Source of the DNA: Botryococcus braunii
Taxonomy: Eukaryota > Chlorophyta > Trebouxiophyceae
Length of the DNA: 64,000 bases
NCBI GenBank assembly: GCA_002005505.1
Contig: KV908504.1
Location: forward strand, 272,900 to 336,899
Reading direction: 5' to 3'
Below the pieces are notes generated by a model. That model was not told the DNA's origin and ran no database searches. It saw only the letters and a list, made by a program, of their open reading frames with translations. The number at the start of each line of letters is the position of its first letter. Position 1 is the stretch's first letter. This document shows, in pieces, positions 10,074-58,660 of the stretch. The translations under genes and the position numbers were made by a program.

Positions 10074-10807
10074 TGTTATAATAGTGAAAGAGCATTTTGG
10101 TGCCTTTCCCTCAGAAGAGTAATAGTGGCCAGATCAGCTCGGATTAACCAGCGGGAACATTCATTATAATGAGTAATAGGTGGCAGAACCTAGGAGTTCT
10201 GCCAGAATCAATCTAGATCAATTTCACATAGATTAGGGAGAATGAGGTAATTGGACACGGTTTGCTTGAAAGGATTTATGACGCCGGCGTGCAAGGGCGA
10301 GGCACTTGATTGGGACATTAAAGGCACTTAGGGTGCTTATCTCTTGACTGTTGCCTATCAAGTCCTCATTCATATTCGGTCACTGCTTGTTCTCCTACAC
10401 ACAACAAGAGTGCCGACGAGCTAATCACCCTTCGTGCCCGGGTCATACAGGTAATCTGACGTTAAGCGACAGAAGCCTCATTGACAATTGGTTAGGAAGA
10501 GGTCTAGATTATGTTATTAAGTTGGTGCTAATGCTTTTGCTCATTGAACACTAATAATGCAAACTATCGGTAGTTGCGTAGATTAAGTAGTTTTGGGTTA
10601 TGAAGTGATGAGAGAAAGCAAGTAGCATTGTAATCACTTGATTGGGACATTAAAGGCACTTAGGGTGCTTATCTCTTGACTGTTGCCTATCAAGTCCTCA
10701 TTCATATTCGGTCACTGCTTGTTCTCCTACACACAACAAGAGTGCCGACGAGCTAATCACCCTTCGTGCCCGGGTCATACAGGAAACGCCAAGCTCAGAA
10801 GTGTTCA
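10074..10807 (+). repeat. 5' LTR of element A with duplicated R segment
   Basis: The LTR carries an identical 148-bp segment at 10303-10450 (R1) and 10635-10782 (R2). R1 is followed by GTAATC, a splice-donor-like start, and R2 ends ...CATACAG before GAAACG, so 10451-10782 is a candidate intron. A weak TATA-like TTTATG at 10275-10280 lies about 27 bp before R1, placing the expected RNA start at the first base of R1. The matching pair in the 3' LTR is 23941-24088 and 24273-24420. Confidence 0.85.
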
Positions 10808-10821
10808 GGTTATGGGCCCAC
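10808..10821 (+). other. Primer binding site of A (initiator tRNA-Met anticodon arm)
   Basis: GGTTATGGGCCCAC directly follows the LTR. It is complementary to the anticodon stem-loop of eukaryotic initiator tRNA-Met (GGGCCCATAACC), not to a tRNA 3' end. Priming by a 5' half of this tRNA is known for Drosophila copia. The same site is present in B, C, D, F and H. Confidence 0.8.
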
Positions 10822-14250: not shown

Positions 14251-14944
14251 TGTGAAAGGTTATGGGCAATCGGCTTTCCCTGTACAAAGCAGACAGGTCG
14301 TCAATAGACGAAGTTACTCCAGCTACAGTCCGTACGACTGTCTGCTGAGTGCCACACACAACTGTCGGACAAGACTAGCATCTGGTGATGCCCAGCATCT
14401 TTCACAACCAGTTCCGTTACATCATTATCTTGTACACAAGCACCGATCAAGCAATCACTAGATAAGGCTCTAGACGGCTACGTTCAAGTACATGCCTATA
14501 CTCCCTGAAGTCACTGTCCCTTATCTGTTTGAGTGACTACAGGGTACACTAAGCTTGTTCACTCTCACAATAGCAACAATGATACAACACACACTGCCGC
14601 ACCGTACCTGTACAAAGCAGACAGGTCGTCAATAGACGAAGTTACTCCAGCTACAGTCCGTACGACTGTCTGCTGAGTGCCACACACAACTGTCGGACAA
14701 GACTAGCATCTGGTGATGCCCAGCATCTTTCACAACCAGTTGGTATTCACTCCGGTGGGGCAGCCTTAAGAGTTCATCCGACAAACGTGTGATCTAGATA
14801 GGATTGTACCTTATGTTCGAAAACGTCCAGAATCTGCCGTGTCTCAAGGTACCTTATGTTCTCAATGGACCCATATCCTAATAGTGCACACATGAAGATC
14901 ACTTAAAGCACAAGGCATTCAATAATAATGTTCAGAACTCAACA
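14251..14944 (-). repeat. 3' LTR of element B with duplicated R segment
   Basis: Read on the minus strand, R1 is 14741-14608 and R2 is 14413-14280, identical 134-bp copies. R1 is followed by GTACGG and R2 ends TTTGTACAG before GGAAAGC. A TATA-like CTTAAG lies about 28 bp upstream of R1. Two GTACCTTATG motifs (plus-strand reading) at 14816-14825 and 14849-14858 lie in the U3 part. The R copies contain an inverted repeat (GCAGACAGGTCGT with ACGACTGTCTGC). Confidence 0.85.
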
Positions 14945-14964
14945 CTTCCCCTTGCCTGCATGCT

Positions 14965-27971: not shown

Positions 27972-29332
27972 TGTGAAAGAGAGAACACCTGTAAGTCCGC
28001 AAAAGGATTTGTCAATGCACTGTAGAGGTTTCGTCAGTCAGACCTCGACACACCCTTTGGCGCGACTGATACAGGTTCGACAGGAGCGCCTTCCCTTGCG
28101 GCAACCAAAAAGCAAGTGCGACTGTCTCAAAGACAAATCAAATATGCAATAGCAAGCTTCAACTTGTAGCAAACAGACAGGACTTCCATTCCGTGGCACA
28201 GGATTCGGCCAACCAACGAATCGATTACATGGGACAATATTACTGCTTGCCCTACTGGCACAATCTCATATACGCATAAATTACTTCTCACATCAGCTGG
28301 TTTCATAGCATCGTCTCAGACATGTTCTGTGCCGGACCTGAGTCCGGCACACTCGTTCCCTTGACGACCTAACAGCACAGCTTTGCGACAGTCAACAAAA
28401 TATCTAACCAAATAGGAATTATCTCATTAAATCACAACTACATCAATACCTGTAAGTCCGCAAAAGGATTTGTCAATGCACTGTAGAGGTTTCGTCAGTC
28501 AGACCTCGACACACCTATTGCCCCAAGCATTACGATTTAGCCAGAGCAATGAGCAACATTGCAAATGCGGTGGTTATCAAATACATCATGCTATTCTATC
28601 CTCTGTCAAAGTGACAACGTACCCTTTGGCGCGATACAGGTTCGACAGGAGCGCCTTCCCTTGCGGCAACCAAAAAGCAAGTGCGACTCTCTCAAAGACA
28701 AATCAAATATGCAATAGCAAGCTTCAACTTGTAGCAAACAGACAGGACTTCCATTCCGTGGCACAGGATTCGGCCAACCAACGAATGACGAGTCTGTCGC
28801 CTCCAGCAGTTAAATACCTGACCGTGTTTGGCGCCCAAGGGACTCGATAAAAGTCGAGTCCCTGAAAGCTTCTCACTCCAAAAGGTCCCTAATTGGTAAT
28901 CCAATACGGATGATGTGTCCTAGACAAAATACCTAAAGGTCCCATTTTCTGTACCTAATTAAACACACTGATGTGGCCGCCTAAGAATTAGTTTGACTGA
29001 CCTCGAATACGTATTCGAGGTCCCAAAAACAAGTTCCACTGAGTGCCACGATGCTGTGTGAGTCAATGCAAAGTTGTCCAAACCTCTATGTGAAGTTACG
29101 TGAGGAAGACTGAGGTCTGTCAAGGAATTATGTCGCTTCACAGCCAAGTTCCTAGGACTAGCTGGAAGAAATATGCAGTAGTTTGCACCTAAGGCCCAAC
29201 AGTGTTGTGCCGTCCAGGGCAGCCTGGCATGCACGACTGTTTTGCCTAGGATTAGTCAGAAGAATACCTCTGAATAAGTCCAACAGTAATGCTCCCTAAG
29301 TAATTACCTGATCTAGGTCATTACCTACAACA
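27972..29332 (-). repeat. 3' LTR of F2 (family F) with intron-bearing R1 and intron-less R2
   Basis: A 1361-bp LTR reads TGTTGTAGG...TTTCACA on the minus strand and is preceded by the polypurine tract AAGGGGAAG. R1 is 28786-28450 and holds a 108-bp GTACGT...CAATAG insertion at 28622-28515. R2 is 28221-27989 and lacks exactly that segment. R1 is followed by GTATTG and R2 ends GACTTACAG. R1 also lacks 4 bp relative to the other F copy. U3 has two strong hairpins (about 28844-28863 and 29003-29025). Confidence 0.88.
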
Positions 29333-32288: not shown

Positions 32289-33314
32289 TGTTATGAAATG
32301 GGGATCATCAGCTGTACTTGGGAAAATTTCACTTCACATCTGATGAGAGTCCCCTACATTTGTCTGCATGTTTGAAGAGGCCAAATAAGGTACAGCTGCA
32401 TAAGGTACAGGTGTACTGCATGACACGTTGTTGATATACTTGGTGTATAGAATAAATGTGAAGTATATTGACTGATAAAGGACATTTGAGACTTACTCAT
32501 GACATTTGAATAAAGTTAAAGGGCCTGCAGACTTTATCCTGGAGTGTACAGGGTGTTACGGACTTACAGTAGAAGTTCCGGGGTGCAATTACGGTTCTTA
32601 TCGTGAGATTCGAGTAAGTTAGACGTAAATGCGCCAACTCCGAGTGGTTTAAAGGTCTCAGGAACAAACTCGGTGATCAGATCGAGATCCGAACGGGTTC
32701 ACGGAGTTAATATCTTCTCGTCGAGTCATTTCACGGAGCGTACGGTCGGCTCCGAGGTTCTGGATCGAAACTCTTGTGGATAGATCTTGTCGTTTATACG
32801 GGCTAGATATTTTCGGGTCGAGTTCGTGAAGAATCCGGTAGGACTGAACGATGAGTGAACGGTTCTACGAATTCACGCATAGTACGAAGCCGCAGATCAG
32901 CTCTCCGTAGTGTTAATAGTGACAAAGACTAGCAAATGCAGAGGAGGCAATGATGTCAGCCTTCCGTAGTATTTAAAGGGATGAAGGCAGTGAGATTGGT
33001 CAGTTCATACGTGACGAACTCCAGTCTGTGAAGCCCTTCGTGAGGATAAGGGCTGTCCATACTGTCTTCTGTGAGCATTGCTAATGATTGCATTATGTCA
33101 CAGGTATCCCTTATGTTTTGCTTAGCTTAGTGAGTCACATCATAACACACATACATTGTAACAGTTCATACGTGACGAACTCCAGTCTGTGAAGCCCTTC
33201 GTGAGGATAAGGGCTGTCCATACTGTCTTCTGTGAGCATTGCTAATGATTGCATTATGTCACAGGGTGTCTGAAATGTGTGTAGATTGACGCTGGACCGT
33301 GCCATTTGCTAAAA
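32289..33314 (+). repeat. 5' LTR of element E
   Basis: It starts TGTTATGAAATGG. R1 (33001-33103) and R2 (33162-33264) are identical 103-bp copies. R1 is followed by GTATCC and R2 ends TGTCACAG before GGTGTC, giving a 161-bp candidate intron (33104-33264). TATTTAAA at 32970-32977 lies 31 bp before R1. Two ATAAGGTAC motifs lie in U3 at 32385-32393 and 32400-32408. The exact 3' border is uncertain, since no TG...CA end sits directly against the primer site. Confidence 0.75.
32970..32977 (+). promoter_or_regulatory. TATA box of element E
   Basis: TATTTAAA lies 31 bp upstream of the first base of R1, so the inferred transcription start coincides with the start of the duplicated segment. Confidence 0.6.
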
Positions 33315-37981: not shown

Positions 37982-40900
37982 GTCACAGTAGAGGATGAGT
38001 TGTCTAATTTCGTTTCAGTTTTACCAGTCACTAGCAAGGCTACCATTGTATCTCATTTGACAGACACTATTACTTACTGGGAGAGACAGACAGAATCCAA
38101 GGTTAAGGCGGTTAGGACTGACAGGGGCACAGAGTTCTTGAATAAAACGTTTCATGGGTTCTGTACTGAGAATGGCATTCACACTGAGACATCTGCCACG
38201 TATACCCCACGGCAGAATGGAGTAGCTGAGAGAATGAATCGAACATTGAAAGAGAAGGCCAGAACATTGCTGTTGGGTGTTCAGGCAGATGAGAGTCTTT
38301 GGGTGGATGCAATGCTTACTGCTTCATATTTACACAATGTGATGCCAGTCTCTGGTCAGGAGAAAACCCCATTTGAAATGTTCATTGGCTCTGTCCCTGA
38401 TCTGTCCCATTTGCGCAAGTGGGGCTGTTTGGCATACGTGAAACATGCCAAACACCAGGTGTCATCTTTGGGTGCACAGTCTGAGGCAGGTATGTTTGTG
38501 GGATACTGTCCACACACCAAGGGGTACAAGGTCCGACTGCCTGGTAGGACAGTGGTGTCTCCGAGTGTACATTTTGTGGAGAGCCAGAGTGGTTCGTCTG
38601 CCATTGGGCTGCAAGCTGCTGGGCCCGGTCCTGTATCTGCAACCCAGCCTGGATCTAGCCTGGATCCGGACCCAGCCTCACCCCAACCGGGACCCAGCCT
38701 GGACCAGGACCTGATTCCTGTGGAATTGGAGACCCCTACATCCACTGAGGCAACAATTCCCATGGAGGACAACAGTAGCGAGGACGATGAACCCTCCCTA
38801 GCTCGCCCTCAAACTGCCCGACTGCATCCAGACCCCACTGCACCCCGCGCACCTTGTGCACCCCCTGCGCGCACTAGGCACTCCAACCTCACTGCACCTT
38901 GCGCCCCCGTTGCGCCATCCCCAGTGGGGTCTCCTGGTTCTACTGCGCCCAGTCCAGCATCCTCAAGCCAATCACCTGGAGTCAGTGAGGTGCCCAGGCG
39001 CATGCATGCTGTTACCAGGCATGGGACCTCTGCACCAACCACCAGTGGAGGGATTCGCACCATAGCCCGACTGAGACTTATGGCAGTACCACTGGCCAAG
39101 TCTCCAACTTCACGCACCCTGGGCTCATTCCCCTAGCCTGGCTCCATAATGTACAATGTGTTCCACAGGCCAGCACAAATCTCTTGTTTGTATCAGCTGG
39201 GGTAAGGGATGGTATTCAATTTGTTCCACGTGAGAATGGGACCTACAGCAGTCTGGTGGGACCCATGGGTTGGGAGTGCAGCATTGTAGAAAGATATGGG
39301 TTGTATGTTCTGAGGGGAATATATCCCACCAAATATCAGGTGGCTTGTCAAGTGTGTGTGAACCCTATGTCTGCACATCATGCTGCGCACAAACCTGCAC
39401 ATAACTGCAAGTTGCGAAAACTTTGGCATGAGAGGTTAGGGCATCCTGGGAAGACAGCCACAGAGCGTTTGAGCAGGGAGGAGTTGTGTACTGGGATACC
39501 TGTGTCCTTTCTTCCTTGTTCAAAGTGCGACACTCACTGTGACCCTTGTGTTCGGGGAAAGCAGTGTAAACCATCTTTCAAGCCAAGTTCACATGAGCCG
39601 CCTCGAGTACTGCATCGAATACATGCGGATACGGTTGGTGCCATGTCAACTCCTGGCGTTGAAGGGGAAAAGTTTTCTGTCACAGCAGTGGATGAGTTGT
39701 CTAATTTCGTTTCAGTGTTACCAGTCACTAGCAAGGCTACCATTGCATCTCATTTGACAGACACTATTACATACTGGGAGAGACAGACAGAATCCAAGGT
39801 TAAGGCGGTTAGGACTGACAGGGGCACAGAGTTCTTGAATAAAACGTTTCATGGGTTCTGTACAGAGAATGGCATTCACACTGAGACCTCTGCCGCGTAT
39901 ACTCCACAGCAGAATGGAGTTGCTGACAGAATGAATCGAACATTGAAAGAGAAGACCAGAACATTGCTGTTGGGTGTTCAGGCAGATGAGAGTCTTTGGG
40001 TGGATGCAATGCTTACTGCTGCATATTTACACAATGTGATGCCAGTCTCTGGTCAGGAGAAAACCCCATTTGAAATGTTCACTGGCTCTGTCCCTGATCT
40101 GTCCCATTTGCGCAAGTGGGGCTGTTTGGCATACGTGAAACATGCCAAACACCAGGTGTCATCTTTGGGTGCACAGTCTGAGGCAGGTATGTTTGTGGGA
40201 TACTGTCCACACACCAAGGGGTACAAGGTCCGACTGCCTGGTAGGACAGTGGTGTCTCCGAGTGTACATTTTGTGGAGAGCCAGAGTGGTTCGTCTGCCA
40301 TTGGGCTGCAAGCTGCTGGGCCCGGTCCTGTATCTGCAACCCAGCCTGGATCTAGCCTGGATCCGGACCCAGCCTCACCCTAACCGGGACCCAGCCTGGA
40401 CCAAGACCTGATTCCTGTGGAATTGGAGACCCCTACATCCACTGAGGCAACAATTCCCATGGAGGACAACAGTAGCGAGGACGATGAACCCTCCCCAGCT
40501 CGCCCTCAAACTGCCCGACTGCATCCAGACCCCACTGCACCCCGCGCACCTTGTGCACCCCCTGCGCGCACTAGGCACTCCAACCTCACTGCACCTTGCG
40601 CCCCCGTTGCGCCATCCCCAGTGGGGTCTCCTTGTTCTACTGCGCCCAGTCCAGCATCCTCAAGCCAATCACCTGGAGTCAGTGAGGTGCCCAGGCGCAT
40701 GCATGCTGTTACCAGGCATGGGACCTCTGCACCAACCACCAGTGGAGGGATTCGCACCATAGCCCGACTGAGACTCATGGCAGTACCACTGGCCAAGTCT
40801 CCAACTTCACGCACCCTGGGCGCATTCCCCTAGCCTGGTGGTACGGCACGTTTCCAGCTGCAGCCTGGAGCTTTGACACGTGCAGAGCGTCTGCTGCAAC

Positions 40901-41947
40901 GAAATGCTCGTAAAGAGCAACCCAAGTCTGGTGACATCATAGAGCAGGCTGGGATCGAAGCTGCTGATGAAGCTCCTACCACCGTCACTGTACATGATGA
41001 CACCAATACAGAAGAAGGGGGGATTACAACGTCCAGGGAACCAGGGGAAGCAGGAGACGTAGGGGAAGCAGGAGAAGCAGAATGTACTGGGAGGGGTACT
41101 GGAGTTGACAACTGACTCTGCAGTGGAGGGTGATTCAAGTGCTGTTGATCAGTGTAGCGATGACAATGCTGTTGCTATGCATGTACGTGATGAGGCTGTA
41201 GGGAGGCTTGTTAATGCAAAATGTGAATCTGATCGTGAAACTCGACTTCGAGTTAGCAATGTGCATGACGCAGTGGACCATTCTGAGATGGTATGTGAAC
41301 ATGAAGAGATGATAACTGCTGCTGCTGTGAGAGAAGATGAGAGCGGGAGTCAGGAAGCACGGAGAGTAGTGGGTCAGATGAGATCCAGAGGCAAGGTTGC
41401 ATTCTTTGATAATCTGCCATCTGCCACAAGCCAGAGCTCAGATAATCCGTGGGCAGGATCTGCCAGGACTGTTAGAGACATTTTGCATGAGCAAGATGGG
41501 GCAGAACCCAGTGGGGAGATGCCTTCATGTGTGTTCCGTACCGCGGATTCAGGAGGGGATGTCAGTGAACCTGCCAGTGTTGCTTTTCTACGTGCTTGCC
41601 TTGCTAGTCCTGCAGGAGTGAGATTTAGCAAGATTCCTGTACCAAGTAACTATCGTGAGGCACGAATATCTGATCAGTGGGTGTTTTGGGAACAAGCCAT
41701 GATCGAGGAGAAGAACTCTCTCGATGCTCATGAGTGCTTTGAGTACACTGAAAGACCCAGAGGAAAGAAAGTCATCCCAGTTCACTGGATCTATTCTGTA
41801 AAAGTCGATGCCCATGGTAATGTTATAAGGTACAAAGCTCGTCTTGTTGCACAAGGATGTCGTCAAATTCAGGGTATTGATGTGGACGAAGTCTTCGCAC
41901 CCACCAGTAGCTTTGGGGCTCGACGTGTTCTTCTGTGTAAGGCAGCT
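37982..41947 (+). pseudogene. F1a pol remnant with tandemly duplicated integrase block, truncated in RT
   Basis: Two near-identical blocks of about 1.16 kb (37982-39142 and 39679-40842) each encode the integrase catalytic part (RTDRGTEF, then YTPRQNGVAERMNRTL or YTPQQNGVADRMNRTL) plus the Pro-rich spacer. Between them (39143-39678) is protease-end and GAG-pre-integrase sequence (LWHERLGHPG). Both blocks end at the same TAG, where F2 has Trp. After the second block the spacer and RT start continue (41105-41945, RFSKIPVPSNYREA) and stop at 41947 where an F LTR begins. A further TAA at 40381-40383 is private to the second block. It is non-functional. Confidence 0.8.
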
Positions 41948-42463
41948 TGTTGTAGGTAATGACCTAGATCAGGTAATTACTTAGGGAGCACTACTGTTGG
42001 ACTTATTCAGAGGTATTCTTCTGACTCATCCTAGGCAAAACAGTCGTGCATGCCAGGCTGCCCTGGACGGCACAACACTGTTGGGCCTTAGGTGCAAACT
42101 ACTGCATATTTCTTCCAGCTAGTCCTAGGAACTTGGCTGTGAAGCGACATAATTCCTTGACAGACCTCAGTCTTCCTCACGTAACTTCACATAGAGGTTT
42201 GGACAACTTTGCATTGACTCACACAGCATCGTGGCACTCAGTGGAACTTGTTTTTGGGACCTCGAATACGTATTCGAGGTCAGTCAAACTAATTCTTAGG
42301 CGGCCACATCAGTGTGTTTAATTAGGTACAGAAAATAAGACCTTTAGGTATTTTGTCTAGGACACATCATCCATATTGGATTACCAATTAGGGACCTTTT
42401 GGAGTGAGAAGCTTTCAGGGACTCGACTTTTATCGAGTCCCTTGGGCGCCAAACACGGTCAGG

Positions 42464-42470
42464 TATTTAA
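42464..42470 (+). promoter_or_regulatory. TATA box of F1b LTR
   Basis: TATTTAA lies 30 bp before R1 (42494). Confidence 0.6.
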
Positions 42471-42661
42471 CTGCTGGAGGAGTCAGACTCGTCATTCGTT
42501 GGTTGGCCGAATCCTGTGCCACGGAATGGAAGTCCTGTCTGTTTGCTACAAGTTGAAGCTTGCTATTGCATATTTGATTTGTCTTTGAGACAGTCGCACT
42601 TGCGTTTTGGTTGCCGCAAGGGAAGGCGCTCCTGTCGAACCTGTATCAGTCGCGCCAAAGG

Positions 42662-42769
42662 GTACGTTGTCACTTTGACAGAGGATAGAATAGCATGATG
42701 TATTTGATAACCACTGCATTTGCAATGTTGCTCATTGCTCTGGCTAAATCGTAATGCTTGGGGCAATAG
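42662..42769 (+). other. Intron inside R1 of family F, absent from R2
   Basis: The segment starts GTACGTTG and ends GGCAATAG. Removing it leaves ...CCAAAGG joined to GTGTGTCG..., which is exactly the R2 sequence at about 43223-43242. The same 108-bp segment is present in R1 and absent from R2 in F2 (28515-28622). Confidence 0.9.
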
Positions 42770-43323
42770 GTGTGTCGAGGTCTGACTGACGAAACCTCTA
42801 CAGTGCATTGACAAATCCTTTTGCGGACTTACAGGTATTGATGTAGTTGTGATTTAATGAGATAATTCCTATTTGGTTAGATATTTTGTTGACTGTCGCT
42901 AAGCTGTGCTGTTAGGTCGTCAAGGGAACGAGTGTGCCGGACTCAGGTCCGGCACAGAACATGTCTGAGACGATGCTATGAAACCAGCTGATGTGAGAAG
43001 TAATTTATGCGTATATGAGATTGTGCCAGTAGGGCAAGCAGTAATATTGTCCCATGTAATCGATTCGTTGGTTGGCCGAATCTTGTGCCACGGAATGGAA
43101 GTCCTGTCTGTTTGCTACAAGTTGAAGCTTGCTATTGCATATTTGATTTGTCTTTGAGACAGTCGCACTTGCGTTTTGGTTGCCGCAAGGGAAGGCGCTC
43201 CTGTCGAACCTGTATCAGTCGCGCCAAAGGGTGTGTCGAGGTCTGACTGACGAAACCTCTACAGTGCATTGACAAATCCTTTTGCGGACTTACAGGTGTT
43301 CTCTCTGCCCATAACCTTTTACA

Positions 43324-44056
43324 GGTTATGGGCCCACCTGCCCATCGAGCTACGCCGAAGCCAAGGTTGCAGAGTACGAGGAGTCCGCCTTGAATACCTG
43401 CTGCACGTCATATCCAGAACGATTCATATCTGCAAAGTGACCCAGACTTGCAGAAACCCATAACCTTTCACATAATGACCCAGTCTGCGGAATCATCTCC
43501 AATGGACCAGCTGAACCAACAGCCTCCTGTAAGTCTGGGTGGTCAATCCACAGAACAGGAGAAGACAGCACTCCCAGTGGTTTCGATACTGACAGCCTTG
43601 ATGGACGAGGACACAACAAAGCCATCAACAACAAATGTTAAGGTAGCCCATCCCTTATTAAAGGATGGGTGGAATTTCAAGTCCTGGCTTTATGATCTGA
43701 CCACCGCTGCTATCCACAAGGAGTGCACGGAGGCCTTTCAGAAACCCCTTCCTTTCACGAGAGCAAATGCTGCTGCCATGATGCTGATCACTGTCCCAGT
43801 GGAGTGGAGTCCTATGTTGACAATGAAGCCCTCTGCCTTTGATGCCCTGTTATACATAGCCAATAAGTTCACTGGAGGACACAACAAGTCTGTTAACCGC
43901 CAGTGGCTACATACACTCAAAACAGAGCACATGACCAGGGGGGAGACGTTCGAGACATTTATCATGAAAAATATTCATACTTTTCCAGAACCTCCTGGAC
44001 AACTCCCACTCCATTGACCCCGAAGATGTAACTAACGCCATTGTGGATTGTCTCCG
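43324..44056 (+). pseudogene. F1b primer site, leader and truncated gag
   Basis: GGTTATGGGCCCACC at 43324-43338 follows the LTR. Gag begins at an ATG at 43475 (MTQSAESSPMDQLNQQP) and runs to a frame break near 44000, with typical copia gag features (DGWNFKSWLYDL, NKFTGGHNK). At 44056 the sequence switches to a minus-strand F LTR fragment. No zinc knuckle or pol remains. Confidence 0.75.
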
Positions 44057-44308
44057 ACGACCTAACAGCACAGCTTTGCGACAGTCAACAAAATATCTAA
44101 CCACATAGGAATTAGCTCATTAAATAGCAACTACAGTCAATACCTGTAAGTCCGCAAAGGATTTCAATGCACTGTAAAGGTTTCGTAAGTCAGACCTCGA
44201 CACACCTATCGCCCCAAGCATTGCGATTTAGACAGAGCAATGAGCAACATTGCAAATACAGTGCATACAAATACAACATGCTATTCTAACCTCTGTCATA
44301 ATGACAAC
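44057..44308 (-). repeat. F3 LTR, distal fragment
   Basis: This is family F LTR sequence (part of intron 2, the 3' part of R1 and intron 1) cut by element D at 44309. The rest of this LTR resumes at 58661. Confidence 0.75.
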
Positions 44309-44313
44309 GTACC

Positions 44314-45041
44314 TGTTATAATAGTGAAAGAACAATTAGTGACTTTCCCTCAGAAGAGTAATAGTGGCCAGGCTTCTCTAAAGCAGTCACTGTGAACAAT
44401 CTAAGAGGTTGAGTAATGGATGGCAGAACTCTAGAGTTCTGCCATAATTGATCTAGACTGATTCCACTTAGGAGAAAGAGAGTAATGCAATTTGACACGT
44501 TCTTGCTAGAAAGAATATAAGCAGCCGGCATGAAGGGCTCGGCACTTGGTTGGGACTGAAAGAGCACTCCGGGTGCTTATCTCTGATCAGTTGCCACAAG
44601 TGTCAACACATAGTCGGGCTCTGCTTGCTCTCCTACACACAGCAAGAGACCCGACCGAGCTTGACACCCTTCGTGCCGGGACATACAGGTAAAGTGCTAC
44701 ATCTTAGTGTGACGTGTATGAACAATTGATTAGGAAGAGGTCTAGATAAGAGTATTAGAATGTTGCTAATGCTTGGCTCATCGAACAATGGTAATGCGGA
44801 CTGTCTGTCGATGCGTAGAAGAGGTAGTTTGAATTCCTTGGCGTTGAGAGAGAGCAAGAAGCAATGTAAAGACTTGGTTGGGACTGAAAGAGCACTCCGG
44901 GTGCTTATCTCTGATCAGTTGCCACAAGTGTCAACACATAGTCGGGCTCTGCTTGCTCTCCTACACACAGCAAGAGACCCGACCGAGCTTAACACCCTTC
45001 GTGCCGGGACATACAGGGAATATTACGCCCAGAATTGTTCA
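44314..45041 (+). repeat. 5' LTR of element D
   Basis: R1 is 44544-44688 and R2 is 44872-45016 (145 bp each). R1 is followed by GTAAAG and R2 ends ACATACAG before GGAATA. TATAA at 44516-44520 lies 28 bp before R1. A hairpin with loop CTCCTACACAC lies at about 44613-44655. Confidence 0.88.
44516..44520 (+). promoter_or_regulatory. TATA box of element D
   Basis: AATATAAGC is the clearest TATA box in the set and places the RNA start at 44544, the first base of R1. Confidence 0.65.
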
Positions 45042-45056
45042 GGTTATGGGCCCACC
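45042..45056 (+). other. Primer binding site of D
   Basis: GGTTATGGGCCCACC follows the LTR, the same initiator tRNA-Met anticodon-arm complement as in A. Confidence 0.8.
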
Positions 45057-45098
45057 AACTCTTGAGCTGGGCAACTGAAAGTATGTTCCGAGTCTACG

Positions 45099-45623
45099 AT
45101 GGGACGAACGAAGCAGAGCGGAAGGATGTCGTCCGGCGGTAAAAGACCTTTCATACCCCCACCTCCTTCACCACCTACATACGATAGCCTGAGGCGAGCT
45201 GGAGGAGATACGGGACCGAGAACACCAGAAGAACGAGCATTCCTGGTGAAGGACTTTGTCAGCGCCGCGTACGGACTGGGTAAAGTCGAACAGCCTCAGT
45301 GGTTCAGACGACGATTCTCTGCATACCCAGCCTACAAAGTAACTGCGTGGGAGTGTTCATTCATCAACGCGGATCCAGGCTTCGTCACGCGAGCATTATT
45401 TGAACGGCATCTACAACAAATCGGAGGACCCAGCAAACCCGAATACTGGGAAGAAAGGGCAGCCTACACAGCAGTGGAGTGTGCTCTCGCCACTCTTGAC
45501 GAGGACTTCCTACTTTCCCTTTTGGGCAGCAGAAAAGGATTCAGCCCAGAGGAGTGGTGCACGGACCCAGATAACGGAGACGAAGACGGGGACTCGCAGC
45601 GTTCAGAACCTAACGAAGACTGA
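45099..45623 (+). CDS. Element D ORF1, 174-codon homologue of the A ORF1
   Basis: It has the same length and plan as 10867-11391: basic start (MGRTKQSGR), Pro-rich run, conserved core with PEERAFLVKDF, PQWFRRRF and AYPAYKV, and acidic end (DNGDEDGD). The N- and C-terminal low-complexity parts vary while the core is retained, which suggests selection on the protein. Its stop lies 16 bp before the gag ATG at 45640. Function is unknown. Confidence 0.75.
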   Translation: MGRTKQSGRMSSGGKRPFIPPPPSPPTYDSLRRAGGDTGPRTPEERAFLVKDFVSAAYGLGKVEQPQWFRRRFSAYPAYKVTAWECSFINADPGFVTRALFERHLQQIGGPSKPEYWEERAAYTAVECALATLDEDFLLSLLGSRKGFSPEEWCTDPDNGDEDGDSQRSEPNED

Positions 45624-46401
45624 GTGACATTCGAGCAACATGGCGAGGAAGAGATCTAAATCAAGGGAGCCATCAGAGGAGGAGCCCACAACAGAGGAGG
45701 TGTCTACATCGTCCCCCACACGACAGCCATGTACACCCAGTACATCAAAGGGTGAGGGAGATGTACTTCCCAAGGTCATAGCCACCCAAGTCAAGGTGCA
45801 TATTAAGCTTGATCGTCATGGCACAAATTTTGTGGTATGGGACAATGCCTTTACTGCGGCAAATAGTGCTAAGGGTTCTTTTCCTGCCATTCAGTCAGCT
45901 ATGCCTGGGACTATCCATAATGCGGCTGCAATGCTTCTGTTGTATGAGTCAGTTCCAGAGGAATGGTTAGGGGAAGTGTCAAGTAAGCCGTCGGCATATG
46001 ATGCATATTTGTTCATTTGCAAGAAATTTGTGGGTGGTTACAACCCTCAAGCCAATGCAGACTGGCTGAAGGAAATGTCAAGAGGGATGAGACGTGGAGA
46101 AACAATCTCTCAGTATGTGTCCAGAATGATAAATCTCAAAAGCTGCTTGAAACGCAATGGACATGACCTCTTGGATGGTCATGTGGCCACTCAGATAGTG
46201 CAGGGACTGCCAGCCGCAGCCAATCCTCCCGGGCTTCTGCCCACTGCAGTAGCTTACCCCCTGGATGAGCTGGCAGCTCTCATTTCCACCACAGCAGAGG
46301 CTTCTGGCTACAACGATGATCGAGAACAGCCTGCCATGGTGATGAAAGCAATGCCTGCCCAACTAGGGGCAGCCCCAGCCCCTTCTACTAGCGGGGCCAT
46401 T

Positions 46402-47095
46402 TGTGAAAGGTTATGGGCAATCGGCTTTCCCTGTACAAAGCAGACAGGTCGTCAATAGACGAAGTTACTCCAGCTACAGTCCGTACGACTGTCTGCTGAG
46501 TGCCACACACAACTGTCGGACAAGACTAGCATCTGGTGATGCCCAGCATCTTTCACAACCAGTTACGTTACATCATTATCTTGTACACAAGCACCGATCA
46601 AGCAATCACTAGATAAGGCTCTAGACGGCTACGTTCAAGTACATGCCTATACTCCCTGAAGTCACTGTCCCTTATCTGTTTGAGTGACTACAGGGTACAC
46701 TAAGCTTGTTCACTCTCACAATAGCAACAATGATACAACACACACTGCCGCACCGTACCTGTACAAAGCAGACAGGTCGTCAATAGACGAAGTTACTCCA
46801 GCTACAGTCCGTACGACTGTCTGCTGAGTGCCACACACAACTGTCGGACAAGACTAGCATCTGGTGATGCCCAGCATCTTTCACAACCAGTTGGTATTCA
46901 CTCCGGTGGGGCAGCCTTAAGAGTTCATCCGACAAACGTGTGATCTAGATAGGATTGTACCTTATGTTCGAAAACGTCCAGAATCTGCCGTGTCTCAAGG
47001 TACCTTATGTTCTCAATGGACCCATATCCTAATAGTGCACACATGAAGATCACTTAAAGCACAAGGCATTCAATAATAATGTTCAGAACTCAACA
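46402..47095 (-). repeat. 3' LTR of element C
   Basis: A 694-bp LTR that looks identical to its partner at 52720, abutted by the polypurine tract at 47096-47104. Confidence 0.9.
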
Positions 47096-47115
47096 CTTCC
47101 CCTTGCCTGCATGCT

Positions 47116-50100
47116 TTAAGTGTATCTTCTCAAACCTAGTGAATCACGATGACCAACAAACACGGGCTTGGCAAGTGGCTTGGTCATAATGTCAGCCACA
47201 TTGCGTGCAGATTCCACATAGAGGATATCTACCTGCCCAAGTGCCATAGCTTCCCTAGCGTAGTGGAAGCTTACTGCAACGTGCTTTGTGAATTTGGAAT
47301 ACAGGGGGTTCCGTAAATTAGAAATGCATCCTTGGTTGTCACAGAAAATTTTGACCCTCCAAGGTGCAGCCCCTATCTCTTCCAAGAAGCCCCTTAGCCA
47401 GTTGGCTTCCTTCACAATATGGCCAGCTGCCATAAACTCAGCTTGCACAGTTGAGGTAGCAACTGAGCTCTGCTTCTTGCTTCCCCAAACCACGGCACTA
47501 CCATAGACTGATAGAACATAGCCAGTGGTGGAATACCTGTGGTCCAGGTCCCCAGCATAGTCGGCATCAACATAGCCTTCTAGCTCAGGGCCCTTTCCAC
47601 CCAGAGTAAGAGCTAACTCTCTGGTATCTCTCAAGTACTTCAGCACTCGAATGGCCTCATTCCAGTGTGAGGTAGTGGGTGTCATTCTATACCTTGACAA
47701 CACTCCAACAGCCTGAGAAATGTCAGGCCGGGTCGTATTGGCTATGTACAGTAACGATCCAATTAACTCGCAGTATCGATGACCAGGTGGCAGAGGGGTA
47801 CCAGCCCCATGTGACATACCATCTGAGGACTCGGGTCTGCTGCTAGCCACGAAGTCCTTGGACATGGGGGTATCAACCCCACGTCCATCATCAGCAACGC
47901 CAAACTTCTCCACAAGAGCATCAATCTTGGGAGTGCAACTCATGGAAATAGTGCCCTGAACTCTATTGCGTAGGACCTGACACCCCAGGAAATCATTCAC
48001 CTCTCCCAAATCATGGATGGTGAAGTCCTTCTTCAATAACTCTTTCCCCCACTCAATCTCTGCAACCACTCTGGCAACTATGAGAAGATCATCGACATAA
48101 ACAAGAATAAACGACAGATTACCATCAGGGGCCCTCCTGATGTATACCCCAGCGTCGCTCTTGCACACACTATACCCCATCACGCTCAACTTGTCGCTCA
48201 AGGTCTTGTGCCAAGCCCGTGGGGCTTGCTTAAGACCGTAGAGTGCCTTCCTGAGCTTGCACACAACTCTCGTGTTGCCATTCTCAAATCCTGGTGGTTG
48301 GGTCACATAGACCTCTTCCTCCAACTCCCCATTGAGAAAAGCTGTCTTGATATCCACTTGGTGGATCTCAAGATTTTGTGTGGCAGCCACTGCCAGCACA
48401 GCTCTCCTAGCACCATAGCTGCTGGTAGGTGCAAAAACCTCACCAACATCTATACCAGGAATCTGTCTGCAACCCTGGGCAACCAATCTTGCTTTAAACC
48501 GAGTGACATTCCCATGTGCATCGTTTTTTGTAGAAAAAATCCAATGAACAGGGATAACTTTCTGCCCATGGGGTCTTTCCACATACTGCATAACCTCATG
48601 GGTGTCTAAAGACTCCATCTCCTCTTGCATTGCCTGCTGCCAAAACTCCCACTGAGGTGAGCGCTGGGCTTCCCTCAAGTTTGAGGGCACGTGAACTTTT
48701 CCCAACGTGACAGAAGGTACACTCTGTACCTTATGCTGTGGTGCAGCAGGGCTGTCAGCCTTACTGATGCTGTTCCCTTCTCTCTCTCTCTCTCCCTGGT
48801 TGCCAGAATAAGGTACATTATGTACCTTATGCTGGGACTGGGCAGTACTGCCGGGATTATCTGATTCCTTCTCAAGTCTCTCTCTCTCTCCTTGACTACT
48901 GGACTCATGTGCAGCACCCTTACATTCTCGCACCTTCCGCAATGCAGAGGGGAGCAGCAGCTCTCTCTCTCTCCTGGACTCACACTTGGGCACACTACCC
49001 AGACTTGCCTGAGCTGCGCCTACAATGTCAGCCTGCACACCATAAGCATGACTAGCCAGTGACTGGGATTGGGCACCAGCTTCCCCTACTGCTGGCATGT
49101 CTAACCCACTGCTCTCATCTCTTACATCTGCACCGAACATAGCCTCGACTGTCTCAACCTGCCCCTGCATATCAGGGAGACCAACCATGTTTGGCTCACT
49201 CACAATTGCCTGACCTGGGTCAGGGGCATGCAATGGGATGTCAGAATGCTCTCTCCTAGCCACGCGCTGTACATAACGCTGCTCCCTTGTAAGGGTGGTC
49301 CCTGGAGGAAGGGGAATTTGTGACTTCCCCTGCATTCGCAACCCCTCTTGTACCTTCTGCATTTTTTCTACCTGGGATTGAGTTTCTACACCCCCCCTGG
49401 CCAGATTCTGCATATGCTCAAGCACCGACCACGAGTGCTGAGATGGTTCTGGGGTCCCAACAGTAGAATCCAGGCTGGTGGGGTTTCCTTGGTCATGTGC
49501 TGCTGTGGTCCCGTCTCCAGACTGATCCCCAGCACAAAGTCCAGAGGTCCCAGGAGCCCCAGTGGAAAGCGTCTCCACTCCATGGTCATCCTCCTCATCC
49601 CAGAACGTGGGTGGAGCAGCAGAGGGAATTGCTTGAGGCGTTGCCAGATTCTCACTGCCAAGGGGGGGTGATATCCTAGAATCATAGACAGACCCAGGCT
49701 GGACCTTTGATAGACCCACTCTCTCAGCCCCCCTCAAGTGCTCGATAAAGCTGACGTCCCTACTCTCCTTCCACACTCCATTCCCCACGTACACACGATA
49801 CGCTTTAGACTGGGGACAATAACCAGTAAACATCCCAGGGATGGTCTTGGGCCCAAAAACAGACCTTTGGCCACTGGGAATGTGCACATGGGCTACACAG
49901 CTACACGTGCGCAGCACAGACACATCAGGTTTGACACCAAAGAATAATTCCATGGGGGTCAGGGACCTGCCTGAAGTAGGACCCACATTGTAGAGGAGGG
50001 TAGCTGTCTCAAGCGCCTCCTTCCAAAGGGAGGGGTCTGCTGCAGCATGGACCAACAGAGTCCTTGTTCGCTCCTTCAGGGTCCTATTCATCCTCTCCGC

Positions 50101-52329
50101 CACCCCATTCTGCTGAGGCGTGTAGGGCGCTGAGGACTCCATCTTAGTGCCCTGCTGAGCACAAAACTCTTTGAATTGCTGGTTCAGGAACTCTGAACCC
50201 CTGTCAGTCCTCACACACTTCACAACCGTGCCTCGTTGGGTCTGCCAAAAACGGAGCAGGTCTATCACAGCCTTTGGGATGCAATCCTTTGACTTCACAG
50301 GCAGGGAGGCAACTTGGTGTGAACTTTCATCCACTACAGTGACCCAATATCGTTCACCTGTGATGGCAGGAGGTGATATGGGACCCACAGTATCCACATG
50401 GACTCTATCGAGTGGGTGATGTGCAGGCCTGGAAGATACAGGGAAAGGAGGTCTGGAGTGTTTCCCTTGTATACACGATTCACAGTGCTTGTGGCACTCA
50501 GAGCAGGGAGCAAGGGAGATATTGATTCCTGTAACCAGATCTTCCTTGGAGAACCTCTGCATGCTGCTGGCACCAGGATGACCTAACCTAGCATGCCACA
50601 GAGATCTCTCGCTACACACGTGTCCTTTCCTAAGATGAGACGCCTCAGCCATGTGATCAATATGTCTGCAGCCAACTTGCTGCCCTCTGACAGGACTAAC
50701 TAACTCCAAAAAAAACAGACCTCGTGCGCGGGTGATATCTCCACACCACCCTTCAGGTCCCTTCATGGCTGTGTAACCACCTGCAGTGTCAGTCAGGAAA
50801 GATGCTCCATCCTGAATTGCACCAGTGACTGAAATGAGGTTGGTATGCGCAGAAGGAACACACTGCACATTGTGCAGCCAGAATACTTCGTGCCTTGCAT
50901 TCACAAGGCATACAGACCCAGATGCAATGATTCCTCCCTTGGCGTCTGAGGTTGCCAAGTGCAGAGGAAGAGGCTGTCTATGCATAACTGGATTATGGAG
51001 CAATGAGAGATCATTGACTATATGCACAGAGGCACCACTATCTATTAACCAAGATGTGCTGCTAGCTCCATGCGAAGTTGGGGCAAGCACATTGAGAGAG
51101 ATAAACATCGCCTCACCAGAAGGAGGGGGTGGAGGTGGTAAATGCCACCCCGGAAACGTGTGTTGACTTGTTGGATAGATATATGCTGAAGGAGGTCCAG
51201 GGCTGGAAGCGGATGAAGGGGGGCCACCCCGGCCAGATCCATGGTCCCACCAGGCTTGAGGAGACGACTGTGGGCCTCCCTGGCCCCAGTAAGCTGCAGG
51301 CCCAACGCTTGCCGCTTGCATGTTTTGATGCAGAGCCTGCAGCTGCCTGAGCGGTCCGCAGTCAGTCATGAAGTGGCCCTTTGCCTTGCAGAAGTGGCAT
51401 GTAAGCTCCTCTCTGGGCCTTCTTGCCCTGCCAGGTCCACGCCCCCTGCCACCAAAAGTAGTTGCAGAGGGGCCAGCGGGAGGCTGTTCGTTTGCTGGTA
51501 GTGCTGCTCCAACTCCCGGTACTGCTCCCACTCCTGGTGCAGCTCCAGCGCTTGATGACGCTCCAGCTACCCCCCCAGAGGGACCAGCCACTGCTGCAGC
51601 TGCCATGGCCTGAGGTGTTCCCTCTGCAGGTGGGTCCTTGTACCCACGGCTGGCTGCGGCGCGCAGGATTCTTTGAATCAGCTCCAATGGCGGCTTGTCG
51701 GTTGCCATAACCTCCAGGGACTCGAGCCTCAGCACAGGAGGGAGGCCCTTCACCATCAGCTCCCCAACATTGTGGTCCAAGAGGATGAACGCGTTGTTTC
51801 TGAGACTTGTAGCCAGATCCATCATTCTGTAGAGGTAGACCTTGAGTGTCTCCCCTGTCTTGATGCCCTGCTCCATTTCCTTGTACCACTCAAGGTTGAT
51901 GTCTTGGTTGCTCCCTCCAGTGTGACTGTTCTTCACCCACGCGATGAAGTCGAACGCTGCTTTGTGGCATGAGATCTGAGAATGCCAGATGACTGGAACT
52001 GACTGGATCAGCCACTGCTTGATGGCTGAGTTCTCCACCGACCCTGGCATTGGCCTCTCCAAAGCCGCTCTGACCCCCTTGGTGTTTGCGCACGCCTCCA
52101 AATTTTCATACCAAAATTCAAAATTGCGCCCTCCATCATCAAGCATGACAGTCATCTTTGGATTAGAGGTATTGGGGATGTAGGCTGCCTTGTCAATCTC
52201 CACCTTTGGTTCTGCAGTGGCTGATTGTGTCCCGGTCATAGACTGCCCTGGAGTGGCCCCACTGACTTCTCCAGGTTGAGACATTGCTGTTTCACTGCTA
52301 CTTTCCTTTTCTTTGCCCCTTTTTGTCAT
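47116..52329 (-). CDS. Element C gag-pol polyprotein, 1737 codons, intact frame
   Basis: It has the same start, length and domain order as 14965-20178. The visible substitutions are few. One in the GAG-pre-integrase zinc region changes Pro to His next to a Cys (SECHKHC), and one after the integrase core changes Phe-Gly to Cys-Ser (LRTCSC), so this copy could be less active than B. RT and RNase H motifs are unchanged. A palindrome (48808-48830) built from two ATAAGGTAC-type halves lies in the spacer-coding part, as in B (16657-16679). Confidence 0.94.
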   Translation of the reverse strand: MTKRGKEKESSSETAMSQPGEVSGATPGQSMTGTQSATAEPKVEIDKAAYIPNTSNPKMTVMLDDGGRNFEFWYENLEACANTKGVRAALERPMPGSVENSAIKQWLIQSVPVIWHSQISCHKAAFDFIAWVKNSHTGGSNQDINLEWYKEMEQGIKTGETLKVYLYRMMDLATSLRNNAFILLDHNVGELMVKGLPPVLRLESLEVMATDKPPLELIQRILRAAASRGYKDPPAEGTPQAMAAAAVAGPSGGVAGASSSAGAAPGVGAVPGVGAALPANEQPPAGPSATTFGGRGRGPGRARRPREELTCHFCKAKGHFMTDCGPLRQLQALHQNMQAASVGPAAYWGQGGPQSSPQAWWDHGSGRGGPPSSASSPGPPSAYIYPTSQHTFPGWHLPPPPPPSGEAMFISLNVLAPTSHGASSTSWLIDSGASVHIVNDLSLLHNPVMHRQPLPLHLATSDAKGGIIASGSVCLVNARHEVFWLHNVQCVPSAHTNLISVTGAIQDGASFLTDTAGGYTAMKGPEGWCGDITRARGLFFLELVSPVRGQQVGCRHIDHMAEASHLRKGHVCSERSLWHARLGHPGASSMQRFSKEDLVTGINISLAPCSECHKHCESCIQGKHSRPPFPVSSRPAHHPLDRVHVDTVGPISPPAITGERYWVTVVDESSHQVASLPVKSKDCIPKAVIDLLRFWQTQRGTVVKCVRTDRGSEFLNQQFKEFCAQQGTKMESSAPYTPQQNGVAERMNRTLKERTRTLLVHAAADPSLWKEALETATLLYNVGPTSGRSLTPMELFFGVKPDVSVLRTCSCVAHVHIPSGQRSVFGPKTIPGMFTGYCPQSKAYRVYVGNGVWKESRDVSFIEHLRGAERVGLSKVQPGSVYDSRISPPLGSENLATPQAIPSAAPPTFWDEEDDHGVETLSTGAPGTSGLCAGDQSGDGTTAAHDQGNPTSLDSTVGTPEPSQHSWSVLEHMQNLARGGVETQSQVEKMQKVQEGLRMQGKSQIPLPPGTTLTREQRYVQRVARREHSDIPLHAPDPGQAIVSEPNMVGLPDMQGQVETVEAMFGADVRDESSGLDMPAVGEAGAQSQSLASHAYGVQADIVGAAQASLGSVPKCESRRERELLLPSALRKVRECKGAAHESSSQGERERLEKESDNPGSTAQSQHKVHNVPYSGNQGEREREGNSISKADSPAAPQHKVQSVPSVTLGKVHVPSNLREAQRSPQWEFWQQAMQEEMESLDTHEVMQYVERPHGQKVIPVHWIFSTKNDAHGNVTRFKARLVAQGCRQIPGIDVGEVFAPTSSYGARRAVLAVAATQNLEIHQVDIKTAFLNGELEEEVYVTQPPGFENGNTRVVCKLRKALYGLKQAPRAWHKTLSDKLSVMGYSVCKSDAGVYIRRAPDGNLSFILVYVDDLLIVARVVAEIEWGKELLKKDFTIHDLGEVNDFLGCQVLRNRVQGTISMSCTPKIDALVEKFGVADDGRGVDTPMSKDFVASSRPESSDGMSHGAGTPLPPGHRYCELIGSLLYIANTTRPDISQAVGVLSRYRMTPTTSHWNEAIRVLKYLRDTRELALTLGGKGPELEGYVDADYAGDLDHRYSTTGYVLSVYGSAVVWGSKKQSSVATSTVQAEFMAAGHIVKEANWLRGFLEEIGAAPWRVKIFCDNQGCISNLRNPLYSKFTKHVAVSFHYAREAMALGQVDILYVESARNVADIMTKPLAKPVFVGHRDSLGLRRYT

Positions 52330-52719
52330 ACTATTGTCACTTCACCAGCCAAACTTACTCATAAACTTCTGGAATGCAGCAATACCCTACAATTCCCTCC
52401 ATGTCATGGAAATTTACCAGCCAGTCTTGCACAGTAGTAGCAGATATGTTCCCCTCAGAAGTTTGCGCCGGAGTCCGGCCCGACTCACTCAGTGCTTCTA
52501 GACAACGTCTATGAATGATAAAGCACAGCTAAAACTTCAATTATGAATTTCCCAGAAAGGTAAACTGTGAGTAAGATAATGGTCCTGGTACACTCGAGTT
52601 CCCTTGCGCCGCTGCGCCATGCTCGAGCTCCTTTGTTGACGCTTACGTCTGACCCATCCGTAGACGACCTTCACTCCTGCTTTTACTTGGCTCAGCTGGA
52701 AGGGCGTGGGCCCATAACC

Positions 52720-53413
52720 TGTGAAAGGTTATGGGCAATCGGCTTTCCCTGTACAAAGCAGACAGGTCGTCAATAGACGAAGTTACTCCAGCTACAGTCC
52801 GTACGACTGTCTGCTGAGTGCCACACACAACTGTCGGACAAGACTAGCATCTGGTGATGCCCAGCATCTTTCACAACCAGTTACGTTACATCATTATCTT
52901 GTACACAAGCACCGATCAAGCAATCACTAGATAAGGCTCTAGACGGCTACGTTCAAGTACATGCCTATACTCCCTGAAGTCACTGTCCCTTATCTGTTTG
53001 AGTGACTACAGGGTACACTAAGCTTGTTCACTCTCACAATAGCAACAATGATACAACACACACTGCCGCACCGTACCTGTACAAAGCAGACAGGTCGTCA
53101 ATAGACGAAGTTACTCCAGCTACAGTCCGTACGACTGTCTGCTGAGTGCCACACACAACTGTCGGACAAGACTAGCATCTGGTGATGCCCAGCATCTTTC
53201 ACAACCAGTTGGTATTCACTCCGGTGGGGCAGCCTTAAGAGTTCATCCGACAAACGTGTGATCTAGATAGGATTGTACCTTATGTTCGAAAACGTCCAGA
53301 ATCTGCCGTGTCTCAAGGTACCTTATGTTCTCAATGGACCCATATCCTAATAGTGCACACATGAAGATCACTTAAAGCACAAGGCATTCAATAATAATGT
53401 TCAGAACTCAACA
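52720..53413 (-). repeat. 5' LTR of element C
   Basis: It is followed on the minus strand by GGTTATGGGCCCAC (52719-52706). Same structure as the B 5' LTR. Confidence 0.9.
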
Positions 53414-57927: not shown

Positions 57928-58655
57928 TGTTATAATAGTGAAAGAACAATTAGTGACTTTCCCTCAGAAGAGTAATAGTGGCCAGGCTTCTCTAAAGCAG
58001 TCACTGTGAACAATCTAAGAGGTTGAGTAATGGATGGCAGAACTCTAGAGTTCTGCCATAATTGATCTAGACTGATTCCACTTAGGAGAAAGAGAGTAAT
58101 GCAATTTGACACGTTCTTGCTAGAAAGAATATAAGCAGCCGGCATGAAGGGCTCGGCACTTGGTTGGGACTGAAAGAGCACTCCGGGTGCTTATCTCTGA
58201 TCAGTTGCCACAAGTGTCAACACATAGTCGGGCTCTGCTTGCTCTCCTACACACAGCAAGAGACCCGACCGAGCTTAACACCCTTCGTGCCGGGACATAC
58301 AGGTAAAGTGCTACATCTTAGTGTGACGTGTATGAACAATTGATTAGGAAGAGGTCTAGATAAGAGTATTAGAATGTTGCTAATGCTTGGCTCATCGAAC
58401 AATGGTAATGCGGACTGTCTGTCGATGCGTAGAAGAGGTAGTTTGAATTCCTTGGCGTTGAGAGAGAGCAAGAAGCAATGTAAAGACTTGGTTGGGACTG
58501 AAAGAGCACTCCGGGTGCTTATCTCTGATCAGTTGCCACAAGTGTCAACACATAGTCGGGCTCTGCTTGCTCTCCTACACACAGCAAGAGACCCGACCGA
58601 GCTTAACACCCTTCGTGCCGGGACATACAGGGAATATTACGCCCAGAATTGTTCA
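57928..58655 (+). repeat. 3' LTR of element D
   Basis: It is preceded by CAAGGGGAAG. R1 is 58158-58302 and R2 is 58486-58630, identical to each other by eye; the 5' LTR R1 has one G where this copy has A. Confidence 0.9.
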
Positions 58656-58660
58656 GTACC

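What the first reader, a model, noticed from the sequence alone, without database searches (positions are those of the whole stretch)
42494..43295. In family F, R2 is a precise intron-less copy of R1
R1 (42494-42834) contains a 108-bp GTACGT...AATAG segment (42662-42769) that R2 (43063-43295) lacks to the base, and both are 233 bp without it. The independent copy F2 shows the same (R1 28786-28450 with intron 28515-28622; R2 28221-27989). A DNA-level tandem duplication would have kept the intron. The simplest explanation is that R2 was written from spliced RNA during reverse transcription, which directly supports RNA-mediated origin of the doubled R.
Basis: partly seen in the sequence, partly recalled or inferred. 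Interest (0 to 1): 0.95.

Follow-up and report, generated by a model that had tools for sequence, protein, structure and literature searches.

The report
Retrotransposon ends rebuilt from spliced RNA
In this (probably green-algal) genome, the ends of several families of jumping genes carry the same stretch twice, and the second copy appears to be rewritten from spliced RNA at each round of copying, which would make RNA splicing a built-in step of how these elements multiply.

Summary
Of 103 F-type R tails in the window and 36 fetched stretches, 48 are intron+spacer (R1) and 52 intronless+U5 (49 after a spacer, so R2); none is intronless+spacer or intron+U5; 3 unclassified. A genome pattern for intronless R1 found 0 places. 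One detail is wrong: F2's R1 is 229 bp without the segment, not 233.

R2 is not a one-time relic. R1 and R2 co-vary element by element in F, A and B, so R2 is renewed from R1. Families A, B and C, with unrelated R sequences, share F's layout: R1 ends CAG|GT, R2 ends CAG|G, and TGTAA (chlorophyte poly(A) signal) starts 3-8 nt before R2 (12 of 12). By a matrix from 38 tubulin introns of this genome, R1 ends at a top-3 donor and R2 at a top-2 acceptor in 10 of 10 LTRs.

Model: the leader splices out spacer+R2 (in F also the R1 intron), putting spliced R1 beside U5-PBS; the RNA ends just inside R2; strand transfer there rebuilds U3-R1-spacer-R2-U5. No RNA data were available. Single-R LTRs are also common; expected by-products, not proof.

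The parts
41948..42493 (+). F1 LTR, U3
   Evidence: starts TG
42464..42470 (+). TATTTAA, TATA-like, 30 bp before the R1 start
42494..42834 (+). F1 R1; inferred to begin at the RNA start site
42662..42769 (+). intron 1 (GTACGT...AATAG) inside R1, absent from R2
   Evidence: host-matrix donor rank 10 of 101, acceptor rank 26 of 88
42835..43295 (+). inferred leader intron 2 = spacer + R2 (CAG|GTATTG ... TTACAG|GTGTTC)
   Evidence: host-matrix donor rank 3 of 101, acceptor rank 2 of 88, branch motif 23 nt upstream
42835..43062 (+). spacer between R1 and R2
43055..43059 (+). TGTAA, inferred poly(A) signal used in the 3' LTR
   Evidence: signal in chlorophytes: PMC1868727, passages
43063..43295 (+). 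F1 R2, intronless copy of R1
43296..43323 (+). U5, ends CA
43324..43340 (+). primer-site-like GGTTATGGGCCCACCTG
   Evidence: the first 15 bases preceded by CA occur 530 times in the genome, reversed control 0
28787..29332 (-). F2 U3
28450..28786 (-). F2 R1 with intron 1 at 28622-28515
27989..28221 (-). F2 R2, intronless
10303..10450 (+). family A, R1 (LTR 10074-10808), ends CAG|GTAATC
10635..10782 (+). family A, R2, ends CAG|GAAACG; TGTAA starts 6 nt before it
14608..14741 (-). family B, R1 (LTR 14250-14945), ends CAG|GTACGG
14280..14413 (-). family B, R2, ends CAG|GGAAAG; TGTAA starts 8 nt before it
33001..33103 (+). family C, R1, ends CACAG|GTATCC
   Evidence: splice matrix not applied
33162..33264 (+). 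family C, R2, ends CACAG|GGTGTC; TGTAA starts 5 nt before it; LTR end at about 33314

Best explanation
These copia-type elements copy themselves through a spliced leader. Transcription starts at R1 in the 5' LTR. Splicing joins the end of R1 (CAG|GT) to the end of R2 (CAG|U5), removing spacer + R2 and the early poly(A) signal with them; in F it also removes a small intron inside R1. The leader becomes spliced R1-U5-PBS. The RNA ends a few nucleotides inside R2 of the 3' LTR, directed by TGTAA. Minus-strand strong-stop DNA, a copy of spliced R1-U5, jumps to that R2 head and is extended through spacer, R1 and U3. Each new LTR is therefore U3-R1-spacer-R2-U5 with R2 newly written from spliced R1. 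Shown from sequence: the layout, the sharp edges, absence of intron 1 from R2, and co-variation of R1 and R2. Inferred: the RNA ends, both splicing events, and the strand transfer.
For: Intron 1 in R1 and not in R2 (46 of 46 selected copies; 48 and 49 tails without exception in the unselected recount; 0 intronless R1 + spacer by pattern). Concerted evolution: F, 34 distinct elements, within-element sum 106 against shuffle mean 249 and minimum 173 of 20,000; A-type, 17 elements, sum 22 against shuffle minimum 338; B-type, 7 elements, sum 4 against shuffle mean 87, P 0.00055. Families A, B and C show the same landmarks on unrelated R sequences. Host splice matrix from 38 tubulin introns: R1-end donor rank 1-3 and R2-end acceptor rank 1-2 in 10 of 10 LTRs scored. 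TGTAA starts 3-8 nt before R2 in 12 of 12; in chlorophytes UGUAA lies mostly 10-30 nt before the cleavage site (PMC1868727, passages). A copy without U3 that begins at the R start, R-U5-PBS (L067).
Against: No RNA evidence of any kind. [quoted passage not shown] Single-R LTRs are common and often on both sides of an element, so doubling may not be essential. One element has a single-R 5' LTR and a doubled 3' LTR, which the model does not produce. Three of 12 LTRs show no TATA-like word, and my word list was loose and made after seeing the sequences. The host's own poly(A) signal is not established. L069 lacks TGTAA before R2.
Confidence: 0.8

Rival explanations
1. R2 was written once from spliced RNA, long ago; since then R1 and R2 have been kept alike by recombination or gene conversion, and no leader splicing is needed in each cycle.
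For: Explains the intronless R2 and the similarity. Exchange between R1 and R2 probably occurs: the element with one single-R and one doubled LTR.
Against: Conversion should now and then carry the intron into R2 or out of R1; 0 of 48 R1 tails lack it and 0 of 49 R2 tails carry it, and 0 intronless R1 by pattern. Does not explain why R edges are donor and acceptor sites with TGTAA just before R2 in unrelated families.
Confidence: 0.09
2. R2 is renewed from spliced R1, but without intron 2: reverse transcriptase leaves old R2 and switches to R1 on the same or another template while making strong-stop DNA.
For: Would also give co-variation and an intronless R2. Template switching is proposed for other LTR elements (PMC1950507, passages).
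Against: Leaves unexplained the top-ranked donor and acceptor at the R edges in 10 of 10 LTRs. Should leave patchy R2 copies, whereas 16 of 17 A-type pairs differ at 0-2 of 162 columns (the other at 5).
Confidence: 0.06
3. DNA-level tandem duplication, with the 108-bp segment a deletion in R2 or an insertion in R1 rather than an intron.
For: The breakpoint has a 3-bp direct repeat (GGT) that a deletion could use; the segment's acceptor is weak.
Against: One register is exactly GTACGT...AATAG; R edges coincide with splice-like sites in families that lack this segment; concerted evolution without the segment moving.
Confidence: 0.03

Closest known systems
Ty1/copia LTR retrotransposons
   Same: Integrase before reverse transcriptase (RVT_2) in one reading frame in three window ORFs; TG...CA ends.
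   Different: R occurs twice in the LTR, the spacer between holds the poly(A) signal, and the leader is inferred to be spliced.
Retroviral R and minus-strand transfer (PMC12789967, passages)
   Same: Strong-stop DNA moves to a repeat at the RNA's 3' end; R begins at the RNA start.
   Different: There the two R copies of the RNA come from one R in each LTR. Here the 5' copy is spliced R1 and the 3' copy is the head of R2.
Suppression of the 5' poly(A) signal by the splice donor in HIV-1 and foamy viruses (PMC12789967, passages)
   Same: Splicing signals solve the problem of a poly(A) signal near the promoter.
   Different: There the donor represses the signal. Here the signal would lie inside an intron and be removed.
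Intron loss in retrotransposition (processed retrocopies, intron-marked Ty1; recalled)
   Same: Precise intron loss in a copy made from RNA.
   Different: The intronless copy sits beside its intron-bearing source in one LTR, and the pair appears to be re-made each cycle.

Membership tests
Ty1/copia LTR retrotransposon | gag-pre-integrase, integrase core and RVT_2 in copia order | tested here: met
   Window ORFs 14965-20178 and 53458-57909 have all three in that order; 11721-14255 and 39184-40383 have the first two
Ty1/copia LTR retrotransposon | paired LTRs at a constant distance | tested here: met
   B-type same-strand pairs about 4.26 kb apart (doubled) and about 3.9 kb (single-R); C-type about 7.2 kb; inferred from spacing, the stretches between were not read
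Canonical LTR (U3-R-U5 with one R) | one R per LTR | tested here: not met
   24 of 30 primer-site loci have R twice; 4 of 30 have one R
Spliceosomal intron (segment 42662-42769) | GT...AG ends and exact absence from the RNA-derived copy | tested here: met
   acceptor weak against the host matrix
Spliceosomal intron (segment 42662-42769 and spacer + R2) | removed from RNA | not testable with these tools
Chlorophyte UGUAA poly(A) signal | motif about 10-30 nt before the cleavage site | tested here: inconclusive
   TGTAA before R2 in 12 of 12 LTRs, but cleavage sites unknown; TGTAA about 140 nt after one alpha-tubulin stop, AATAAA and no TGTAA in the ~180 nt held after a beta-tubulin stop
Half-tRNA (initiator Met) priming as in Drosophila copia | primer site complementary to the anticodon arm of the host's initiator tRNA | not tested
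   resemblance recalled; no tRNA gene in the window

The most novel reading that the evidence does not exclude
A class of LTR retrotransposons that depends on the spliceosome for replication. The terminal redundancy needed for first-strand transfer is not a single R region but is rebuilt each cycle by splicing the 5' leader, with the poly(A) site hidden in the removed intron. Several families in this genome, with unrelated LTR sequences and two different primer-site-like sequences, use it.
Probability: 0.65. Interest if true: 0.9.

Novelty: new variant of a known kind. Interest (0 to 1): 0.86.

Why it matters
It would add a splicing step to the LTR replication cycle, solve the promoter-proximal poly(A) problem in a new way, and leave a natural DNA record of spliced retrotransposon RNA: R2 would be a print of the parent's spliced R1. 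It predicts exact RNA ends and junctions that one RNA-seq or RACE experiment in this organism can test, and gives a search signature (repeat edges at AG|GT and AG, TGTAA before the second copy) for other algal genomes.

Tried and rejected
Chance deletion or insertion as the origin of the 108-bp segment: rejected as the best reading (GT...AG register, no exception, same R edges in families without the segment). Extra spacer-R2 unit in L023 as a triple-R intermediate: rejected, because its flank reads as the R1 tail of another F LTR, so it looks like a nested insertion. Single-R LTRs as proof of the second splice: not decisive, since R1 x R2 recombination gives the same product. By length, recombination should leave the intron in about 65/233 of them; 2 of 28 counted carry it (26, 2; binomial 0.007), but the copies are not independent events and those two share variants. 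RVT_1 elements were searched (150 of 2,679 candidates scored) but no stretch was read, so whether gypsy-type LTRs share the layout is unknown. The organism was not identified: rbcS matches split in two halves on contig C465 and the TGTAA pattern point to a green alga; Botryococcus braunii is a guess from genome size and base composition. Paper searches on R duplication, LTR introns, strong-stop, splice donor, Botryococcus, green-algal Copia and TGTAA showed no described case in listings or in the passages I read; only open-licence PMC papers are held.

Rows dropped before counts: one search kept only copies aligned in one piece (recounted without that filter). One search used 34 distinct of 46. 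One search used 19 of the 24 doubled primer-site loci (14 A-type, 5 B-type), leaving out L050, L052 and L069 (repeat ends not clean) and the F-type L064 and L066, plus 5 window LTRs of more that the window holds. One search scored 10 LTRs (C not scored). One search looked at 12.

Full report
What is there. F1 is an LTR at 41948-43323, followed by a primer-site-like GGTTATGGGCCCACC. It holds U3, R1 (42494-42834, with a 108-bp GT...AG segment at 42662-42769), a 228-bp spacer, R2 (43063-43295, without the segment) and a 28-bp U5. F2 on the minus strand has the same parts.

How general it is in F. Search of the whole genome (176 Mb, 989 contigs) with the F core gave 218 first-look candidates, 40 of them scored, and 58 matches. 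I fetched 36 stretches around listed copies. In these and the window, 46 copies match the core in one alignment; 46 of 46 have the segment in R1 and 0 of 46 in R2. Three of the 46 are diverged copies at about 91%, and one of those ends AATAA. Because that selection could hide exceptions, I recounted every R tail in the same sequences: 103 tails, 48 intron+spacer, 52 intronless+U5 (49 of them behind a spacer, 1 behind U3, 2 unresolved), 3 unclassified; none is intronless+spacer and none intron+U5. In the whole genome a pattern for R1 without the segment next to the spacer had 0 matches. A pattern open to all combinations had 338; text was shown for 25: 9 R1 ends all with the segment, 16 U5-adjacent ends all without.

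R2 is renewed from R1. With the segment set aside, R1 and R2 of the same element share their variants. F: 34 distinct elements, summed within-element differences 106, against 249 mean and 173 minimum in 20,000 shuffles. A-type: 17 elements, within-element sum 22, while R1 and R2 of different elements differ at 45.8 of 162 columns on average; shuffle minimum 338. B-type: 7 elements, sum 4, shuffle mean 87, shuffle minimum 4, P 0.00055. Neither A nor B has a fixed R1/R2 difference. A one-time duplication left alone would make R1s resemble R1s and R2s resemble R2s.

Other families share the layout. A (10074-10808 and three more in the window), B (14250-14945, minus strand, and others) and C (R1 33001-33103, R2 33162-33264) have R sequences unrelated to F's. 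C has a different primer-site-like sequence and same-strand LTR pairs about 7.2 kb apart. Among 30 primer-site matches taken in listing order out of 530, 24 have R twice, 4 are single-R (L048, L055, L065, L068), one is a copy without U3 (L067) and one shows no recognisable R1 (L058). TGTAA lies at or directly before the R2 start in 23 of the 24 (not L069). In 12 LTRs examined closely it starts 3-8 nt before R2, and in 8 of the 12 stretches it is the only TGTAA. A TATA-like word lies 25-31 nt before R1 in 9 of 12; L049, L053 and L063 showed none, and the word list was loose and made after seeing the sequences.

The edges are splice sites by the host's own rule. From 5 tubulin loci I read 38 GT-AG introns, with recalled tubulin proteins as bait, and made donor and acceptor matrices. 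In 10 of 10 LTRs scored, the end of R1 is the first- to third-best donor among 41-101 GTs, and the end of R2 the first- or second-best acceptor among 49-88 AGs. A YTRAY branch motif lies 21-29 nt before the acceptor in 8 of 10 (in the host introns it lies 14-45 nt before in 55% of 38). F's intron 1 is weaker: donor rank 10 of 101, acceptor rank 26 of 88.

The model. Start at R1; splice R1 to U5, removing spacer + R2 (and intron 1 in F); end just inside R2 after TGTAA. UGUAA in chlorophytes peaks about 17 nt before the cleavage site and lies mostly 10-30 nt before it (PMC1868727, passages), which would put the 3' end roughly 2-27 nt into R2. Strong-stop DNA is then a copy of spliced R1-U5 and can pair with the R2 head at the RNA's 3' end. 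Extension copies spacer, unspliced R1 and U3. The product is the observed LTR with R2 = spliced R1, so the structure renews itself. In the 5' LTR the poly(A) signal lies inside the inferred intron, which would protect the transcript from early ending. Retroviruses with the signal in R need other means, such as U1 at the splice donor in HIV-1 and foamy viruses (PMC12789967, passages).

Single-R LTRs. U3-R-U5 forms, joined exactly at the predicted junctions where I read them (L045, L048, L055, L065, L068), are common. Counting the query itself, full-length matches were 30 of 40 scored (1,199 candidates) for B-type, 26 of 40 (268) for F-type and 5 of 40 (784) for A-type; scoring favours such copies, so these are not frequencies. 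In B, 8 same-strand pairs have both members in this form (5 of the 8 at 3.94 kb, against 4.26-4.27 kb for 3 doubled pairs), as expected if they are made during reverse transcription. One element on C1 has a single-R 5' LTR and a doubled 3' LTR, which fits recombination after insertion better. Transfer of strong-stop DNA to R1 instead of the R2 head would give single-R LTRs, and so would R1 x R2 recombination. They are compatible with the model, not proof of it, and their number warns that doubling may not be essential. Two further F-type single-R LTRs carry the intron.

A copy that starts at the R start. In L067 an R(spliced)-U5-PBS-gag stretch without U3 begins within a few nucleotides of the R start, behind gag sequence, with a few shared bases at the join. 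This is what a template switch at the RNA's 5' end would leave.

Limits. rbcS matches split in two halves on contig C465 and the TGTAA pattern point to a green alga. The host's own poly(A) signal is not settled: TGTAA about 140 nt after one alpha-tubulin stop, AATAAA but no TGTAA after a beta-tubulin stop. Why intron 1 stays unspliced at the RNA's 3' end is open; its weak acceptor is one possible reason. The nine prior-art paper searches that answered showed no description of a doubled R or of terminal redundancy made by splicing; only open-licence papers are searched, so this is weak evidence of novelty.

Noticed in passing
L067 and L068 (G000:C14:165429-166533): LTR-PBS-gag followed by a second R-U5-PBS without U3, with a roughly 20-bp stutter of gag at the join: looks like a template-switch product.
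   Followed up: partly
window 44056-44313 and 58656-59373: A diverged F LTR is split by an insertion (44314-58656) flanked by A-type LTRs; the split lies at the left edge of intron 1, with the 5 bp 42661-42665 of F1 present on both sides, like a target-site duplication.
   Followed up: no
window 43305-43332: U5 contains CCCATAACC, the reverse complement of GGTTATGGG in the adjoining primer-site-like sequence, so U5 and primer site could form a hairpin; many other F copies show it.
   Followed up: no
window 40348-41947: Directly before the F1 LTR the pol frame breaks off; about 1.4 kb present in the related copy at 59374-60820 is missing.
   Followed up: no
G000 contigs C379, C38, C62, C119, C127, C245: F LTRs are clustered on a few contigs, often in both orientations; on C249 three copies lie about 5.68 kb apart with the same flank, like a tandem amplification.
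   Followed up: no
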